Assembly (NCBI GenBank): GCA_017379935.1 | Contig: JAFNVC010000036.1 | Location: forward strand, 1-46,415 | Length of the DNA: 46,415 nucleotides | From: Clostridia bacterium | GTDB taxonomy: Bacteria; Bacillota; Clostridia; Oscillospirales; Acutalibacteraceae | Reading direction: 5' to 3' | In this document: in pieces, positions 362 to 9,782 of the stretch | Numbering within the stretch: position 1 is the first letter of the stretch | How the letters are laid out: each line of letters opens with the position of its first letter | Position numbers and translations under genes: made by a program | Notes under the pieces: generated by a model | The model's database searches: none | What the model saw: only the letters and a program-made list of their open reading frames with translations | Told to the model about the DNA's origin: nothing

Positions 362-3300
362 TTATTCAACTGTGTAGTCAAATGAGCTCATCTCTACCCA
401 AGCACCGTTAACCTTAACCTTAACGATGATTGTGTTAACGCCAGCATCGTTAGCCCAAGCATTACCTACGAACTGAAGGTCACCGTTATCAAGAACTGTA
501 GCCTTATCAGCTGAGTAAGTTGTTGTTGTGCCGTTAGCCATTACGAATCTGATAGCCTGTGCGTCAGGACCAACAACTACTGTTGTTGAAACTGCACCCT
601 TCTTGCCTGATGTAGCAACAGGAGTGATTTCACGGATATCAGCGTCGAATGTGGGCTCTACGAACTGAAGCTCGAATGAGTATCTCTCTGTCTCCCAGAT
701 GTACTGGTTGCCAACGAGGTACTTTGTACGTACTTCAACGTTCGGTCCGATGAGGTTTGTGTTGATTGTCCAGATTTCATAAGCAACGTCACGGCTGAGT
801 GAGTTAACAACTTCGCCTGCTGCATTGTAGCTAACGATTGTAACGTTCTTATTGTATCTGTCATAAGTTCTTGTACCACCGTCTTCTTCGATGAACTGAA
901 CCATAGCCATTCTGCCGTTTACAACAACGTCGAATGTGTTATGAGTATCTTCTGCCGGAGTGTATGTGATTGTTGAGATGCTTGAAACAACTTCCTTAGC
1001 AACGAGCTTGCCAAGTGCATCTGTGATAGCTGCTGCTGCTGCATCGATTGTATCCTGAGCGCTTACGCCAAGGTTTCTGTCGATTTCAGCTGCTTCTGCA
1101 AGAGCTGCATCAACTGCTGCCCATGTGTCAGCTGTCCATGCGTTCTTGTCATATGTGCCAGCTGTACGGATAGCTGCGTCAAGAGCTGTGTAATCAGCCT
1201 TGAGCTCAAGAGCTGCCATAGCTTCGTTAAGAGCGTCAGCTGCTGCGTCAACCTTAGCCTGATCGTCGATTGTGAGATCACGAGCAACGTTATTAGCTGC
1301 TGCAAGAGCTGCTGCAACGTCTGCGAAAGCTACATAATCATCAGCTTCGAGAGCCTCAGCTGCTGCGATAGCCTTATCAAGTGCATCATAATCAGCGGGT
1401 TCAACAACGATTTCTACAAGAGCTGCTGTAGCTGCGATGATGTCTGCTGCATACTTGTCAACTACATCCTGCTTGTTCTCGTTGAGGTTCCAGTCGATAG
1501 TATCGATGATAGCGTTAACTGCATCGATACCGTCCTGCTCGTACTCTGCTGCTGCGATCTTAGCTTCGAAAGCGTCGATAGCATCGTTAACTGCTGAGTA
1601 GTCAGCTGCTGCAGCTGCTGCAACTGTAATCTTGAGGAAGTTATTCTGCTGGAACATTGCTAAGCCGTACTGCTCATATGTGTAATCCCATACAAGAGCG
1701 TTCTTAGCTGCAAGGTATGCTGCATATTCGTCAGCATCATAGTAATCTACTGCGTTAGCTTCGATCTCTGCGATCTTAGCTCTGATTGCTGAGTAATCCC
1801 AAGCGCGGAACTCAGCTGTTGAAATAGCTGCATTGATAGCTGCTGCCATTGCGTCAACCTTAGCCTGATCCTTCTTCTTGAGACCTGTTTCAACTGTAGC
1901 GAGAGCTGCGTTGATAGCTGCAAGAGTATCGTCTGAATAGCTGTTTACGCCGTCGTCCTTCTTGTTAAGGATAGCGTTTGCTGCTGCTGTAGCAGCTGTA
2001 ACCTTGCTGTAATCAGCGTCTGCTTCTACAAGAGCGCCCATAGCGTTAACAAGAGCTGCTGTAGCTGCATCGATTACATCCTGGTCGTTTGCTGTGAGGT
2101 TCTTGTCAACGTTCTCTGCTGTTGCAAGAGCTGCTGCAACGCCTGAGAAGTCAACATAGTTATCAGCTACGAGAGCCTTAGCTTCTGCAATAGCTGCGTT
2201 AAGAGCATCGTAGTTAGCTGCGCCAGCGGGAACGAGAGCCTTGATAGCTGCATCAAGAGCATTTGCTGCTGCATCGATAATAGCCTGATCTGAGATCTTA
2301 AGATCACGAGCTACAGCCTTAGCTTCGTCATACTTAGCCTTTGCAGCTGCGTATGAGTCAGCAGTCCAGTTCTTCGGATTTACAAGTTCGAAAGATCCGA
2401 TCTGTACATCAAGAGCTGAGTAATCAGCATCCTTCTCAGCGAGAGCTGCGAAAGCGTTTGTAAGAGCTGCAAGAGCATTGTTGATTTCAGCCTGATCAGC
2501 TGCATTCTCGTTAGCAACGAGGCTCTGAGCTGTTGCAAGAGCTGCATTGAATGCGCCTGCTGTTGCATCTGTGTAGATAGATGTGTCTGTACCAGCTACC
2601 TCTGCAACCTTAGCTGCGAGTGCTGAGTAATCAAGTGCGGGAACAAGGTCAGCGATAGCTGCTGCAAGTGAGTTAGCTGCTGCGTTAACCTTAGCCTGAT
2701 CAGCTTCGTTTGTCTGATCGATAGCTGCTGCTGTTGCATAAGCTGCTGCTACAGCTGCCCAAGATGCATCTGTCCAATCAGCCTTGTTAAGAGCTGCATA
2801 ATCAGAAAGAGCCTTGTTGAGAGCTGTGAAATCTGCAAGATTCTTAGCTGCTGCGATAGCTGCTGTAAGAGCCTCTACTGCTGCATCAACAGTAGCCTGA
2901 TCCTCAGATGAAAGAGCTGAATTACCAGCTGTGATAGCTGCATTAAGAGCTGCCTTTGAATCAGCTGTGATGTTGCCTGCAAGAACAATTGCTGCATCAG
3001 CAAGAGCCTTTTCAAGTGCTGTGTAATCTACTTCGGGCTCTGAAGCGCCGGGGATCTGAATTGTAAGAGTAGCTTCTGAATAGTCAAAGTACTGATTGTC
3101 GTCAGCGTACTGCATGTTGTACTGAGTCTGTGCAATTGTATCAACATAGGGGCCGGGTTCTGACTCGCCGTCACAAATACCGATCTCAGTAAGTCTTGTT
3201 GAACCACCCTTCTTAGCTGAACGCTGCTCAAGGCCTTCGGGAATTGTTACATAGTATGTTGAGCCGGGCTCTGCATCTGCGGGAATCTTAACCGGCATCA

Positions 3301-3925
3301 TGATAAGATGAGTTGAATCATCTTCCCAAATACAAGTCTCACCTGAAACGTTCTCGTTTGCAAGGTTCATGATACGGTTCCATTTCCAATCAGCTGTGTT
3401 GAAGAGGTTGTTACCTGCATCATCTGTCGGCCAGTTTTCAGCAACATTGTACTTAGCATCTTCACCCTGGAGTGTCCAAGCATTCTGAGCTGAGTAACCT
3501 GTACCAGACTGCTCTACCCACAAATGTGCTGTATTCCAAATGTGAACCTTTTTGAGGTAAGCAGCTGTAATAGCTTTACCTCTCTGTGCCTGATAATCCT
3601 CAGCAGCATCAATAAGATCTGCTGAATAGAAGAGGTTTGTCTGGAACAAACCAACATAGTAGTTGTTTGTTGCATAAAGACGAACAAAAATTGTGTCTCC
3701 CGGCTGTGCTTCGATTGTAGCACCGGGTTCGGATTCTTCGCCTTCTGTTAATTTTACAGCTGCATTAGTTGTCCATTTAACTGTACCAACTGAACCTGTA
3801 AGCCAAATCTTAGCCTGATACTTAGCAGTATCGGGGTTACCGTTAGCTGAGGCTGCAACTGCGAAAGCGCCGAGTGCGATTGCAAGAGCAAGAACAACAC
3901 TCAAAACTTTTTTTGCGAGTTTCAT
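362..3925 (-). CDS. Secreted FIVAR-repeat protein with N-terminal cohesin-like domain
   Basis: A 1187-residue exported protein of unknown role. Residues 1-27 are a signal peptide (KK near the start, a hydrophobic core, then AAASA-type small residues). Residues about 65-290 contain the pattern 'QPGDTIFVRLYATNN' followed by a beta-rich stretch, which resembles cohesin-like or carbohydrate-binding beta-sandwiches. From about residue 299 to 980 there are ten tandem helical repeats of about 67 residues. Each opens with D-Y-x-A-L and carries a D-Q-x-x-[IV]-D-A-A-x-x-A-[LI] signature, typical of FIVAR modules; the seventh is divergent. The last about 200 residues are a beta-rich region with no dockerin or sortase motif. 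A GGAGG site precedes the ATG. It is the last gene of a three-gene minus-strand group of secreted proteins. FIVAR arrays usually act as spacers or binding modules on surface proteins. Binding to glycan or host ligand is inference. Confidence 0.85.
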   Translation of the reverse strand: MKLAKKVLSVVLALAIALGAFAVAASANGNPDTAKYQAKIWLTGSVGTVKWTTNAAVKLTEGEESEPGATIEAQPGDTIFVRLYATNNYYVGLFQTNLFYSADLIDAAEDYQAQRGKAITAAYLKKVHIWNTAHLWVEQSGTGYSAQNAWTLQGEDAKYNVAENWPTDDAGNNLFNTADWKWNRIMNLANENVSGETCIWEDDSTHLIMMPVKIPADAEPGSTYYVTIPEGLEQRSAKKGGSTRLTEIGICDGESEPGPYVDTIAQTQYNMQYADDNQYFDYSEATLTIQIPGASEPEVDYTALEKALADAAIVLAGNITADSKAALNAAITAGNSALSSEDQATVDAAVEALTAAIAAAKNLADFTALNKALSDYAALNKADWTDASWAAVAAAYATAAAIDQTNEADQAKVNAAANSLAAAIADLVPALDYSALAAKVAEVAGTDTSIYTDATAGAFNAALATAQSLVANENAADQAEINNALAALTNAFAALAEKDADYSALDVQIGSFELVNPKNWTADSYAAAKAKYDEAKAVARDLKISDQAIIDAAANALDAAIKALVPAGAANYDALNAAIAEAKALVADNYVDFSGVAAALATAENVDKNLTANDQDVIDAATAALVNAMGALVEADADYSKVTAATAAANAILNKKDDGVNSYSDDTLAAINAALATVETGLKKKDQAKVDAMAAAINAAISTAEFRAWDYSAIRAKIAEIEANAVDYYDADEYAAYLAAKNALVWDYTYEQYGLAMFQQNNFLKITVAAAAAADYSAVNDAIDAFEAKIAAAEYEQDGIDAVNAIIDTIDWNLNENKQDVVDKYAADIIAATAALVEIVVEPADYDALDKAIAAAEALEADDYVAFADVAAALAAANNVARDLTIDDQAKVDAAADALNEAMAALELKADYTALDAAIRTAGTYDKNAWTADTWAAVDAALAEAAEIDRNLGVSAQDTIDAAAAAITDALGKLVAKEVVSSISTITYTPAEDTHNTFDVVVNGRMAMVQFIEEDGGTRTYDRYNKNVTIVSYNAAGEVVNSLSRDVAYEIWTINTNLIGPNVEVRTKYLVGNQYIWETERYSFELQFVEPTFDADIREITPVATSGKKGAVSTTVVVGPDAQAIRFVMANGTTTTYSADKATVLDNGDLQFVGNAWANDAGVNTIIVKVKVNGAWVEMSSFDYTVE
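985..3030 (-). repeat. Ten tandem FIVAR-like repeats within the coding region
   Basis: The DNA is dominated by in-frame AGC/GCT-rich codons for alanine and repeats about every 200 bases. The protein repeats diverge enough from each other (for example 'NLTANDQDVIDAATAAL' versus 'NLGVSAQDTIDAAAAAI') that they are not a recent homogenised array. Boundaries are approximate. Confidence 0.8.
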
Positions 3926-5152: not shown

Positions 5153-8100
5153 TTAGCCGATCACAAGAACTCTATCCATTGAGTTAACTGTTGCAGTAGC
5201 TGATGCAACTGCAAGGAAGCTAGCAAAGTCTGTTGAGTCAGCCATACCGTCAAGGTTAAGGTCTGCAGCAACAGTTACGATACCATCAGGAACCATTGTA
5301 GCAGATGAAATAGCAAGAGCGGAACTCAAGTCTGTTGAGTCAGCATAAGCATCACCAGTGATATCACCATAAACAGCGATTGTGTAAGTAGCAATAACAT
5401 CACCCGTAGCTTCATTTACGATTTCAACAACAGCACCTGTAGACATTTCGCCTGAAGCGTTAGGCTTTGCATTGACATAGCAGCCTTCGCAAGCGAAGTA
5501 ATCTTCAATAGCGAAATCACCATCGTTAGCGTTACCGATACCTGTGATAACTGTTACGCCACCATCAGCTTCGATAATCTCCGGAATAGCGTCGCCGCCA
5601 TCGGGGTTAACCGGCTCAAATGTTACGTCGCCGCCAACTTCGCCGCCGCCTTCACCAGCTGCAACAAGTCTCTTCTCTTCCTCGAGAAGGTTACGGTATG
5701 CTGCCTTAACCTTTGTCGGGTTAGCATCATCATCGTTAAGTGTTGCAAGAGCGAAGTCACGTGCTACTGTGTAGTTGTACCATGACTCTTCTGAATACTC
5801 TGACTTATCACCGATTTCACGTGACGGGTTGTTAAGCTCTCTCTCAAGGTGTGTCTTAACAACGTTATCAACCTCAATAAGTCTGCCGAAGTAGAGCTCG
5901 AACTTGTGCTCTCTGTAAGCCTTATCAAGCTCGTTAACTACTGCAACCTCACCAGTCTCCTCGTCGGGAGTTGTTGCCCAGTAGATCATATCTTCAAGAG
6001 CTCTCAACTCGTCGCGGAAGTTGTAGTATGTGTACGGAACATAGTCCGAAACGCCCTGGTGGATGTAAGCGGGATCATAGTAAGCAAGATCCTCGGGATT
6101 TGACGGATAGCACTTATCGATCAGTGCCTGTGATGAAGCTACACCAGCTGAAAGAACCTGTGCATCAAGCTCTTCGATAGCCTTTGAAAGGTTATCGTAA
6201 GCGGGCTTGTAAAGGCTGTGCTTACCTGCTATTGTGTAGAATGTTGTGTTACGGAAACAGCTGTAAACTGCCTTTGAAGCATCAATCATAGCCTGGTTGT
6301 AAGCTTCCCAAACTGACATACCAGCGAATACTGTTGAGTCAGCTGTTGCATAAGCTGATGCCTGACGGTGCTTGCCCATTTCTGACTCAAGCATTCCGGG
6401 AAGACCGTAGTCTCTGTAAACATATACAACAGCTGCATTAGAAACTGTTGTTGAACCGTTGATCTTTGCACCAACAGTGAGCTGTGCTCTCGGGTAACTC
6501 GTAAGGGCACCGGTTCTCGGGTTATAAACCATACCGTACTCAACAATATCGTCCCAAAGAGTTTCTCTCTGCTCGTCTGTAAGATTTGCATAAGCCTCTG
6601 TTGTTTCAAAGAGCTTCATGTTTGCAACACCGGGAGCGTCTTCAACCTGCTGCATAATTGCAGTCTCTTCTGTACGAAGCTGAAGGAGTTTGATAGTATC
6701 GTTTGTTGCCTCTGTCGTATTATCGGGCACCAAGCCGAACTTTCCGTTAGTTGCCTGTGTCATATAAGGAACAGCAGTCGCTGCGTTTGCAGTTGTGTTC
6801 TGAAGAGTGATTGCGTAATCCTCAAGATCGTCGAAGCTGTTAGCATAGAGATACTTCGGACCGTCGATAATCTTGAAGCTTGTACCAGCCTGAAGCGGGT
6901 TGGTATCGTCAGGCTGCTCGTTGTAAGCAAGGTATGAATAGATCGTCTCAGTGATGGGCTCATCTGTAAGCGGTGAGCCGTCCTCAGTAAGAACGTCGTA
7001 TGTCATTGTAACAACGAGGGGTGTTGATTTATTTACACCGCCCTTGAAGAGCAATTCTGCTGTCTGACCACCGGCAATTTTGCCTGAGAAGGTCGTAGAA
7101 ACACCTGAAACGTTTGTTGTTACAGACTTGACATCATAGGTGTAGAGCTGATCCTGATGGAATACACCGTTCTTATCCGTGTAACCTGTGTTGATACCCG
7201 TTGAACCGTTACGAACCATAAGCTTAACGTTAACTGAACCGGCTGTACGGATTGAGTTACCTTCAACGTTAGCGTCTGACGGGTCCCAAGTAAGCTCGGG
7301 GAACTCGAATTCCTGGTCGTTTGTAAGATCAAGGATGCTACATACGATCGGAAGAGCAACCTTTGCAAGATTTGCCTTGAAGTTCCAGAGAGCATCGAAG
7401 ATAGCTCTTACTGTACCTGCAAGTGCCTGATTTGTAACAAGAGCATCAAGAGTTGTAGCCGGCTTGAAAGCATCCGGGAAGATGATGTTAACAACGCGAG
7501 TTACAAGATTGATGATAACCTGCTTCGGAGCCTTCTGAAGCTCTGAATCTGCACGATACTCGAAGAGCTCGAAGAGAGCCTCGAAATCGAGAGCAGCGAT
7601 TGTTTCAATGAGATTGAAGATGAATGTCTTAAGGTCATTGTTTGCAGAAGCCGGAAGCCAGTTTGAAGGAATGATTGCGAAGAGCAATGTGTTGAGGTTT
7701 TCCCATGCTGATGCTGTTTCGCTGAACTTGATACCGTTCAGAACGCCTGCATAGTTGTCAACTGCATAGTCCATTGCCTTCTTAAGCTGAGCCTCTACGC
7801 CGTCCATTGTATAAACATACTCAAGACCCATATCAAGCTCTGAGCTTACAGAGTAGATAGCGTAGTTGATACCCATGATAACAAGTGAATCTGTGCTGTT
7901 CGGATCGAGGTCTGAGAAGTCAAGCTCCGGAATGTCAGTTGCAAGAACCTGCTGAAGAGCAAGGAATGCGAACTCGTGGATTGTGTCTGTCTCAGGAACA
8001 TACATACCGAAGGATGAGCTGTTGATGATAGCACGAACTGCATAGATAACAAGTTCTTCAGCTGTCATAGCTTCGATCTCTTCCTCAGTAGCAAGCTCGA

Positions 8101-9241
8101 TGTAATCAGCAAAGAGCTCGTCGCCTGCGTTAACAAGAAGCTGCTTAGCAACGTTTACAAGGTTACCCTTGAATGCTGTCTTGTCACCAGCCTGCCATAC
8201 CATTACAGCGGGATTGATGAGAGCATCAAAGATTGACTTGATGATGTTGTTACCCTGTGAAATGAATGTATCATTTGTGAAGGTATAAGTCGGAACAACA
8301 TAGTCAACGTTGAGAAGGTTTGCATACTCGTTAAGGCCTGAACGATCTTCTGTAACTTCACCAGTAGCTTCGTCTGTGATGTATACGATACCGCAGAACT
8401 TCTGGATTGTGCTCTTAAGCTCTGAGTTCATAAGAGGAACAAGAAGCTCATTGTAGAGAACCTTGATTACGTTATCGATGAAAGTATACATTGTGCCTGT
8501 TGAGATGTTTGTCTGACCCTTGAGTGCGGGAACGAGGGGCTCTACAAACTCTTCGCCATCCATATAGCCGTCAGTAACGTACTTATCGATGAGAGTCTGA
8601 GCCATAGCGTCAACAGAAGAAGCAGCTACCTGCTCATCTGTACCTTCAACGCCGTAAGCAAACTCATAAAGAAGACCCTTGAGGAGCTTATTAACATCCA
8701 TAAACTCGCTGAGGTCGACGAGAGCGCCAAGGATTGAACCCGGATCAAGCTCGCCTTCTACGAATGAAACGAGAAGGTCTGTGTTGTCGTGCAAGAACTG
8801 GAAGACAGCGTAGAAGATGTCAAGGTCAGTCTTGCCTGCTGTGTCTCTACGAACACCACCCTTGTCAGGTGTTTCGAATGCATCAGCATTCAAATACTGA
8901 AGGTCACCGAGCATACCCTTCAATGATGAGAAGAGTGCGCCGTCGATGATGGTGTCGACAGAGTCGAAAGCTGCGTCAACAGATGTAAGGTCGATATCAC
9001 CAACGATGATGTCTTCCTTTGTGAACTTGAGCTGCTCTTTGTTAAGCATACGGTCAAGCTCATCCATTGCTGCAGATGCATACTGCTCTGTTGTAAGAAC
9101 TGCCTTATCGAGAGCGTTGTACTGATCGATAATTGCGCCGTCCTTATAAGCAACGTATGCAGCGTTTGCGCCGATTACGAGTGTTGAGCACATCATTACG
9201 ATTGCAAGAATAACACTCAGAAATCTTTTTGCATTACTCAT
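5153..9241 (-). CDS. Large secreted dockerin-containing protein, unknown function
   Basis: A 1362-residue exported protein. The ATG at 9241 is chosen because GGAGGTG (9257-9251) sits 9 bases before it. An ATG at 9259 would overlap that site and add only MEVQSK. Residues 1-28 are a signal peptide (FLSVILAIVMMCSTLVIGANA). The long middle (about 30-650) is helical and acidic, with no family I recognise. A beta-rich segment follows ('GSVNVKLMVRNGSTGINTGY'). Near the C-terminus are FIVAR-like helices (YSEESWYNYTVARDFAL). A dockerin closes the protein with repeats GDITGDAYADSTDL and ADLNLDGMADSTDF. The dockerin shares the unusual D-S-T-D wording with its neighbour's, suggesting recognition of the same cohesin. 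It is the first gene of the three-gene secreted cluster and lies directly downstream of a candidate structured RNA. Confidence 0.82.
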   Translation of the reverse strand: MSNAKRFLSVILAIVMMCSTLVIGANAAYVAYKDGAIIDQYNALDKAVLTTEQYASAAMDELDRMLNKEQLKFTKEDIIVGDIDLTSVDAAFDSVDTIIDGALFSSLKGMLGDLQYLNADAFETPDKGGVRRDTAGKTDLDIFYAVFQFLHDNTDLLVSFVEGELDPGSILGALVDLSEFMDVNKLLKGLLYEFAYGVEGTDEQVAASSVDAMAQTLIDKYVTDGYMDGEEFVEPLVPALKGQTNISTGTMYTFIDNVIKVLYNELLVPLMNSELKSTIQKFCGIVYITDEATGEVTEDRSGLNEYANLLNVDYVVPTYTFTNDTFISQGNNIIKSIFDALINPAVMVWQAGDKTAFKGNLVNVAKQLLVNAGDELFADYIELATEEEIEAMTAEELVIYAVRAIINSSSFGMYVPETDTIHEFAFLALQQVLATDIPELDFSDLDPNSTDSLVIMGINYAIYSVSSELDMGLEYVYTMDGVEAQLKKAMDYAVDNYAGVLNGIKFSETASAWENLNTLLFAIIPSNWLPASANNDLKTFIFNLIETIAALDFEALFELFEYRADSELQKAPKQVIINLVTRVVNIIFPDAFKPATTLDALVTNQALAGTVRAIFDALWNFKANLAKVALPIVCSILDLTNDQEFEFPELTWDPSDANVEGNSIRTAGSVNVKLMVRNGSTGINTGYTDKNGVFHQDQLYTYDVKSVTTNVSGVSTTFSGKIAGGQTAELLFKGGVNKSTPLVVTMTYDVLTEDGSPLTDEPITETIYSYLAYNEQPDDTNPLQAGTSFKIIDGPKYLYANSFDDLEDYAITLQNTTANAATAVPYMTQATNGKFGLVPDNTTEATNDTIKLLQLRTEETAIMQQVEDAPGVANMKLFETTEAYANLTDEQRETLWDDIVEYGMVYNPRTGALTSYPRAQLTVGAKINGSTTVSNAAVVYVYRDYGLPGMLESEMGKHRQASAYATADSTVFAGMSVWEAYNQAMIDASKAVYSCFRNTTFYTIAGKHSLYKPAYDNLSKAIEELDAQVLSAGVASSQALIDKCYPSNPEDLAYYDPAYIHQGVSDYVPYTYYNFRDELRALEDMIYWATTPDEETGEVAVVNELDKAYREHKFELYFGRLIEVDNVVKTHLERELNNPSREIGDKSEYSEESWYNYTVARDFALATLNDDDANPTKVKAAYRNLLEEEKRLVAAGEGGGEVGGDVTFEPVNPDGGDAIPEIIEADGGVTVITGIGNANDGDFAIEDYFACEGCYVNAKPNASGEMSTGAVVEIVNEATGDVIATYTIAVYGDITGDAYADSTDLSSALAISSATMVPDGIVTVAADLNLDGMADSTDFASFLAVASATATVNSMDRVLVIG

Positions 9242-9281
9242 TTTGGATTGCACCTCCATTAAAATTTAATACTATAAATAT

Positions 9282-9309
9282 AGTATAAGTTTTGCACGCT
9301 TTTAGTCAG
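9282..9309 (-). promoter_or_regulatory. Possible sigma-A promoter of the large dockerin gene
   Basis: Minus strand CTGACT (9309-9304), 16-base spacer, TATACT (9287-9282), about 40 bases before the ATG at 9241. The -35 element is imperfect. An AT-rich palindrome, ATACTATAAATATAGTAT, overlaps the -10. Confidence 0.35.
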
Positions 9310-9525
9310 CTGTGCACCGCTGATGCGACATTATTACGTTATGTAACCTCTGCCTTCGGAACGAACCGCCGTCCGCCGCCTAAAACCTTCCCGCTTCAGC
9401 AGCGTGTCGGGTCAGCACCGAGGGTTGCGATTACCACGTCAATACGACGCAATTTTAAACCAGACGGGTGTCACAGCATAGCGTTGCTGACATCAGGGCA
9501 GACTAGCCCTAATGACACCACTCTT
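9290..9525 (-). ncRNA. Candidate structured non-coding RNA (possibly raiA-motif-like)
   Basis: Reading the minus strand from about 9525: GTGTCA (9518-9513) pairs with TGACAC (9473-9468) and encloses two hairpins, AGGGC-TAGTCT-GCCCT and CAGCA-ACGCTA-TGCTG, giving a clean three-way junction. CCGTC (9467-9463) pairs with GACGG (9373-9369) around a second domain containing TTGCG/CGCAA and CCCG/CGGG stems. A TTCG-TTC-CGAA hairpin, a TTACATAACGTAA hairpin and a CAGC/GCTG stem follow. GC content is well above the AT-rich flanks, and no credible reading frame with a ribosome binding site exists on either strand. It has its own promoter. Of the large clostridial RNA classes I know, the raiA motif fits best in size, but I cannot confirm it. 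The 3' end is not defined. It could also be a long leader of the downstream dockerin gene. Confidence 0.6.
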
Positions 9526-9531
9526 ATGGTT

Positions 9532-9560
9532 AGTATAAATATAAACCTTTTTACAGTCAA
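9532..9560 (-). promoter_or_regulatory. Sigma-A promoter of the candidate ncRNA
   Basis: Minus strand TTGACT (9560-9555), spacer of exactly 17, TATACT (9537-9532). The predicted start near 9525 falls about 7 bases before the first stem of the three-way junction. That placement supports a dedicated transcription unit. Confidence 0.7.
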
Positions 9561-9681
9561 AGTCAATAAATTTTCGTCGATTATTTATAATTTGTACATA
9601 TTTCACAGTATTTGATATCATTTTTTTACAGACCGGAATCACGGCGGAATTATTAAGCTTTTACGCTTTTTACAAAGTGTA

Positions 9682-9717
9682 AAAAAAGAAAAAACGGCAC
9701 AGATTTGCTCTGCGCCG
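9682..9717 (-). terminator. Rho-independent terminator of truB
   Basis: Minus strand CGGCGCAGA-GCAAA-TCTGTGCCG (9717-9695) with one G-T wobble, followed by six T. It lies about 65 bases past the truB stop. Confidence 0.85.
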
Positions 9718-9782
9718 ATTGCGTGTTTTTTGTGCCGGATTCCCTATATATATAAAATGTATACGGATTTTGCGTTTTTTGC

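What the first reader, a model, noticed from the sequence alone, without database searches (positions are those of the whole stretch)
9290..9560. Promoter-driven structured RNA upstream of the secreted dockerin cluster
A TTGACT-N17-TATACT promoter on the minus strand points into a GC-rich block. That block folds into a three-way junction (GTGTCA/TGACAC enclosing AGGGC/GCCCT and CAGCA/TGCTG) and a second closed domain. No coding frame is credible. It may be a raiA-motif RNA, another known clostridial large RNA, or a new class. Its position before a 1362-residue secreted protein also allows a leader role.
Basis: partly seen in the sequence, partly recalled or inferred. Interest (0 to 1): 0.78.

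Follow-up and report, generated by a model that had tools for sequence, protein, structure and literature searches.

The report
Knotted RNA leader of secreted protein
The messenger RNA of a large secreted protein in uncultured gut bacteria starts with a 290-base folded leader, probably of an undescribed RNA family, whose shape, including a pseudoknot before the ribosome site, is kept in evolution while its letters change; it probably protects or controls that message.

Summary
The block is a real structured RNA, but it matches no Rfam family, raiA included. It is the 5' leader (about 9531 to 9242, minus strand) of the 1362-residue secreted-protein gene. The leader is seen in 17 of 18 genus genomes, always before this gene. 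I compared 41 leaders from related Clostridia.

I assign it to 22 of 41 leaders, 20 of them at P<=0.05 singly. Its stems change freely and its third loop is A-rich. The central domain and pseudoknot covary within the genus.

The gene has ribosomal-protein-like codon bias. My best guess is an mRNA-protecting leader: an occluded 5' end plus a pseudoknot roadblock to RNase J, which the genome encodes. Confidence in the mechanism is only about 0.45. There are no transcript data here, and a short-leader paralogue has similar codon bias.

The parts
9591..9598 (-). TGTACAAA half-site upstream of the -35, possible operator (palindrome TTTGTGCACAAA in one relative)
   Evidence: TG[CT]ACAAA (either strand) in 23 of 41 promoters, 1.3 expected from shuffles; start at -67 in 11 and at -78/-79 in 9. 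Pattern chosen after looking.
9538..9566 (-). promoter TTGACT-N17-TATATT
   Evidence: kept in relatives
9242..9531 (-). structured 5' leader RNA, 290 nt; start inferred from the promoter
   Evidence: seen in 17 of 18 genus genomes upstream of the same gene; mean identity 0.70-0.87 per 50 nt in 7 close genomes against 0.37-0.42 in the spacer just upstream
9458..9531 (-).
   Evidence: P2-like pairing in 35 of 41 leaders, mean 0.84 vs 0.39 in shuffles; P1-like pairing 21 of 41, 0.51 vs 0.35; alternative 5' hairpin in full-length folds
   Evidence: 42 of the 52 pairs counted; covariance model R1 finds untrained L011 at 57.0 bits (48.2 by sequence alone) and L056 at 31.6 bits (not found by sequence alone); L010 not found
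9374..9404 (-). hairpin CGCUGCUGAA / UUUUAGGCGGCG with conserved loop GCGGGAAGG (9394-9386)
   Evidence: 94.4% of cells paired, 2 pairs with changes on both sides (helix 5); loop letter-perfect in 10 of 12 genus leaders (L005 and L056 differ)
9293..9323 (-). H-type pseudoknot: S1 UCAGC/GCUGA (9323-9319 with 9310-9306), S2 UGCAC/GUGCA (9316-9312 with 9297-9293), A-rich loop 3
   Evidence: helices 6 and 7
9269..9286 (-). A/U-rich hairpin AUACUAU/AUAGUAU between pseudoknot and ribosome site
   Evidence: seems to covary in relatives by eye, not counted
9253..9257 (-). Shine-Dalgarno GGAGG of the gene
5153..9241 (-). secreted protein, 1362 aa, weak C-terminal dockerin-like match
   Evidence: CAI 0.802, third of 29 window genes
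9695..9717 (-). terminator-like hairpin after the upstream truB gene; separates the transcription units

Best explanation
It is a cis-acting, structured 5' leader RNA of a highly expressed secreted-protein gene, of a family not in Rfam. Shown by sequence comparison: one leader per genome before the same gene, a 5' domain closed by a long-range stem, a covarying central domain in the genus, and an H-type pseudoknot about 50 nt before the start codon in about half of the leaders. Inferred: transcription starts near 9531. The leader's main job is to keep the message alive and its start site open. The 5' domain hides the 5' end from 5'-dependent decay, and the pseudoknot stalls the 5'-3' exonuclease RNase J before it reaches the ribosome site.
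For: Leader in 17 of 18 genus genomes, always before the orthologue. Covariation 0.206 against 0.160 in shuffles (0 of 500) and at most 0.077 when slid. Pseudoknot with 12 distinct S1 and 16 distinct S2 helices among 22 leaders, 20 of them ending 48-56 nt before the start codon, loop 3 56% A. No fixed letters in its stems suits a mechanical block better than a ligand pocket. Gene CAI 0.802 against a mean of 0.729 for 18 ribosomal proteins (leave-one-out). RNase J is in the genome, 640 bits. Precedents read as passages: occluded 5' ends stabilise Bacillus messages (PMC3997798); SD-like STAB-SD blocks RNase J1 (PMC4113751); a folded viral RNA halts RNase J1 in vitro (PMC5760640).
Against: No transcript, half-life or nuclease data. 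A paralogue with a leader of only about 90 nt has CAI 0.766, so a long leader is not needed for high expression. The pseudoknot is lacking in 19 of 41 leaders, among them the whole clades C, D, F and G. In an unconstrained search the window's own best pseudoknot was a different one. The 5' end is only modestly more paired than in shuffles (0.62 vs 0.53; long-range 0.51 vs 0.35). The STAB-SD-like element is absent in the window (longest match 5 nt, P = 0.91). A 290-nt conserved RNA is more than simple protection needs.
Confidence: 0.45

Rival explanations
1. A regulatory leader: a metabolite, ion or protein binds the folded RNA and sets translation or stability of the secreted-protein message (riboswitch or protein-binding leader).
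For: Large ornate fold, alternative pairings at the 5' end, a nearly fixed loop GCGGGAAGG in the genus and a purine-rich motif in 32 of 41 leaders, 7.7 expected. Many riboswitches use pseudoknots (recalled).
Against: No Rfam riboswitch match. No fixed nucleotides in the pseudoknot across clades. The ribosome site is not paired into a conserved helix and no intrinsic terminator was found inside the leader. CsrA, a possible binder of a GGA loop, is not found in the genome.
Confidence: 0.28
2. A separate or processed small RNA that also acts in trans, with the gene transcribed by read-through.
For: Own promoter, compact fold, conserved purine-rich loop that could pair with targets.
Against: No terminator-like site between leader and gene. 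Always fused to the same gene, and leader and Shine-Dalgarno spacing are kept together.
Confidence: 0.1
3. A leader-peptide device: a short upstream ORF is translated and its ribosome controls the fold.
For: Eight of 41 leaders have an SD-like stretch at P <= 0.02, some followed by a start codon. Six of the eight closest genus leaders share an ORF start ATGTCGCATCAG at the pseudoknot (read).
Against: None of those eight leaders is from the window's genus. In the window the SD-like match is at chance level (P = 0.91) with no start codon behind it. Peptides are not conserved between leaders.
Confidence: 0.07

Closest known systems
mRNA-stabilising 5' leaders of Firmicutes (aprE, ermC, cryIIIA STAB-SD)
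   Same: 5' leaders of abundant messages; 5'-end occlusion; RNase J as the opponent (PMC3997798, PMC4113751, passages only)
   Different: Those are short or simple. This one is 290 nt with a multi-helix domain and a pseudoknot, and in the window it has no STAB-SD-like stretch. Stabilisation is untested here.
raiA motif RNA (RF03072, ModT)
   Same: about 200-300 nt, structured, Clostridia
   Different: No covariance-model match at the block up to E = 10
Exoribonuclease-resistant RNAs (flaviviral xrRNA)
   Same: A pseudoknot-containing fold can stop RNase J1 in vitro (PMC5760640, passages)
   Different: xrRNAs are ring folds in viral 3' regions; this is an H-type pseudoknot in a bacterial 5' leader, and resistance is untested
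preQ1-I and other H-type pseudoknot riboswitches
   Same: H-type topology with an A-rich third loop (recalled)
   Different: No Rfam match; no conserved pocket letters

Membership tests
raiA motif (RF03072) | match to the Rfam covariance model | tested here: not met
   no match up to E = 10 in 9200-9780; none in the own genome, but no control genome rang
any Rfam 15 family | score above the gathering threshold | tested here: not met
   window: only two tRNAs; 15 relatives: none; 13 relatives at E <= 5: three weak unrelated hits below threshold
STAB-SD leader | strong SD-like sequence near the 5' end, without a start codon | tested here: not met
   window longest anti-SD match 5 nt, P = 0.91; P <= 0.02 in 8 of 41 other leaders, all outside the genus
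5'-occluded stabiliser (ompA/aprE type) | 5' end sequestered in a stem | tested here: inconclusive
   nt 3-4 long-range paired 0.73 in the window vs 0.29 in shuffles; 21 of 41 overall; any pairing 0.62 vs 0.53
5'-occluded stabiliser (ompA/aprE type) | longer mRNA half-life | not testable with these tools
   needs a reporter or RNA decay assay
H-type pseudoknot | two crossing helices kept by compensatory change | tested here: met
   22 of 41 leaders, 20 at P <= 0.05 singly; helices 6 and 7 84.5% and 90.9% paired with 2 and 4 doubly changed pairs
exoribonuclease-resistant RNA | stops a 5'-3' exonuclease | not testable with these tools
   needs an RNase J1 assay
preQ1 and other listed riboswitches | match to the Rfam model | tested here: not met

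The most novel reading that the evidence does not exclude
A new family of bacterial leader RNAs whose pseudoknot is a natural exoribonuclease roadblock: its shape and its distance of about 50 nt from the start codon are kept while nearly every base pair has been replaced. It lets the gut Clostridia hold a large secreted, dockerin-type protein message at ribosomal-protein levels.
Probability: 0.25. Interest if true: 0.75.

Novelty: new variant of a known kind. Interest (0 to 1): 0.56.

Why it matters
It adds what looks like an undescribed, fast-evolving structured leader family, tied to one gene in uncultured herbivore-gut Clostridia. If the roadblock reading is right, it would give a cellular bacterial counterpart of exonuclease-resistant RNAs and a ready-made message stabiliser. 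The pseudoknot is small (about 31 nt) and can be tested in one in-vitro assay.

Tried and rejected
raiA and every other Rfam family: rejected for the window and for the relatives searched. STAB-SD as a general feature: SD-like stretches are significant in 8 of 41 leaders only, none in the window's genus. Leader peptide or hidden gene: small indels, no conserved frame. CsrA binding of the conserved loop: no CsrA in the own genome; the control rang in 3 of 14. The long-range stem UGCG..CGCA against a local hairpin in the same stretch: both fit parts of the genus, left open. 5'-hairpin pattern as a family marker: in 398 family genomes 8 matched; the three outside the genus lie in unrelated contexts. 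GCGGGAAGG alone is not specific: 23 places in the own genome. Covariance model of the central domain: finds L011 and L056 but not L010 or any other genus; it also gives a weak antisense match in the window, E 0.0099.

How the 41 leaders were chosen: 12 genus leaders plus 40 further loci, minus 2 without a strict promoter match (L034, L077) and 9 duplicates. Of the 29 loci L022-L050 printed, five gave no start (L036, L044, L047, L048, L050) and seven weaker homologues (L037-L042, L045) were left out; several were duplicates of L051-L079. The set is thus biased to loci with an obvious leader, and close relatives are not independent. Pseudoknot geometry, purine motif and half-site pattern were defined after looking. 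Three other leaders reach P <= 0.05 with a different geometry (L028, L033, L069) and were not counted as members; two of my 22 (L012, L060) are at P 0.12-0.17.

Full report
What is there. A promoter TTGACT-N17-TATATT (9566-9538) precedes it and is the member of an overlapping pair that relatives keep. The upstream truB gene ends in a terminator-like hairpin at 9717-9695, so the leader begins a new transcription unit. The start at 9531 is inferred; no transcript data were available.

It is not coding and not in Rfam. Inside the leader the longest sense ORF has 18 codons, and small indels separate it from its three nearest relatives. The window gave only tRNAs at Rfam gathering scores. The block gave no meaningful hit up to E = 10. 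Fifteen relatives gave none, and thirteen more gave three weak unrelated hits at E <= 5. The minus strand folds better than 200 of 200 shuffles (z -3.35); the plus strand does not stand out.

Distribution. A DNA search found the block in 12 of 60 relatives, all of the own genus, one place each. A protein search then gave the remaining orthologues, so the leader is seen in 17 of 18 genus genomes; the 18th, 61% complete, showed only a paralogue. Homologues of the protein's first 400 residues are in 38 of 300 family genomes, 20 of 135 genera, and at 29 named loci, all MAGs of Clostridia and mostly, by their titles, from ruminant or horse gut. Upstream of most of those examined lies a long leader directly after a -35/-10 pair, but its sequence is very different from genus to genus. 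The paralogue printed from nine genus genomes has only a short leader.

Selection. In seven close genomes the leader is 0.70-0.87 identical per 50 nt, while the spacer just upstream of the promoter region is 0.37-0.42. On a plain MAFFT alignment of 12 genus leaders, 52 pairs (42 central, 10 pseudoknot) form in 84.6% of cells. Seventeen pairs have changes on both sides, against 8.7 in shuffles (0 of 500). The covariation score is 0.206, against 0.160 in shuffles and at most 0.077 when slid; the count of further pair types is not above shuffles (287 of 500). The structure came from one of the sequences, and with nine closer sequences the signal is weaker: score 0.143 vs 0.125 (6 of 500), doubly changed pairs 4 vs 2.2 (42 of 500). 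A covariance model from those nine finds untrained L011 at 57.0 bits (48.2 by sequence alone) and L056 at 31.6 bits (missed by sequence alone). It misses L010 and all other genera tested.

5' domain. Counting any partner at least 35 nt away, nt 13-16 are paired with probability >= 0.5 in 35 of 41 leaders, mean 0.84 against 0.39 in shuffles that keep the first six letters. Pairing of the very 5' end is weaker: long-range 21 of 41, 0.51 vs 0.35; any pairing 0.62 vs 0.53. Full-length folds without pseudoknots prefer a local 5' hairpin in the window, so two 5' states compete.

Pseudoknot. The window has UCAGC-GG-UGCAC-A-GCUGA-CUAAAAGC-GUGCA at 9323-9293. Searching each leader for an H-type pseudoknot ending 40-75 nt before the start codon gave P <= 0.05 against 200 shuffles in 23 of 41. 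I count 22 leaders as members by geometry (20 of them at P <= 0.05; L012 and L060 are not), and leave out three others that are significant with a different geometry. Members have 12 distinct S1 and 16 distinct S2 helices; loop 3 is 56% A against 27% in the leaders; 20 of 22 end 48-56 nt before the start codon. In an unconstrained search the window's best pseudoknot was another one. Clades C, D, F and G lack it.

Gene. The 1362-residue protein has a signal-like N-terminus, no confident family and a sub-threshold dockerin match at its C-terminus. Its CAI against 18 ribosomal proteins is 0.802, third of the 29 window genes I scored. The two ahead are a gene I recognise as dnaK-like (0.861) and a secreted-protein gene of the same cluster (0.846); the ribosomal proteins average 0.729 (leave-one-out). 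The short-leader paralogue scores 0.766.

Mechanism. Shown: conserved structured leader, 5' domain, pseudoknot, high codon bias, RNase J in the genome. Inferred: transcription start, folding in the cell, protection from decay. A stem set whose letters drift freely while shape and distance to the start codon stay is what a mechanical element would look like; a ligand pocket should fix letters. Against this stand the nearly fixed loop GCGGGAAGG in the genus, the purine-rich motif (32 of 41 leaders, 7.7 expected) and the paralogue. Passages of reviews describe occluded 5' ends and SD-like blocks as stabilisers in Bacillus (PMC3997798; PMC4113751; PMC7509114), and one passage set shows a folded viral RNA stopping RNase J1 in vitro (PMC5760640). 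That this leader does so is my proposal.

Novelty. Searches for an earlier description listed no paper that by title or abstract start describes this leader; supplements could not be read. A catalogue of candidate RNAs from human microbiomes (PMC8040213, listing only) could hold a relative. I rate it a new variant of a known kind (structured cis-acting leader).

Noticed in passing
window 9591-9598 (-) and 23 of 41 leader promoters: Half-site TG[CT]ACAAA (full palindrome TTTGTGCACAAA in L032) upstream of the -35 in 23 of 41 promoters against 1.3 expected. It starts at -67 in 11 and at -78/-79 in 9, about one helical turn apart, and occurs in 1 of 9 paralogue promoters. Looks like a transcription-factor operator.
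   Followed up: partly
G000:C18:17196 and L096-L109: Every genus genome examined for it but a few carries a second, shorter paralogue of the secreted protein (open frames about 1110-1250 aa) with a quite different short leader.
   Followed up: partly
L046, L049, L069, L072-L075, L035: In these other-genus leaders an 8-9 nt perfect anti-SD match (AAGGAGGU) sits 98-129 nt before the gene, P <= 0.02; it may be a STAB-SD or a leader-peptide start.
   Followed up: partly
window 362-3922 (-): 1187-residue secreted-protein gene downstream in the same cluster with CAI 0.846, second of 29 genes scored; FIVAR-like repeats only below the cut-off.
   Followed up: no
L076, L078, L079: Leaders of a further clade with a long conserved GC-rich stretch (GGCGACGACGUUGGC.., GGGAGGUCAGUCGCGGCGAGCG) and no pseudoknot at the usual place; structure unexplained.
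   Followed up: no
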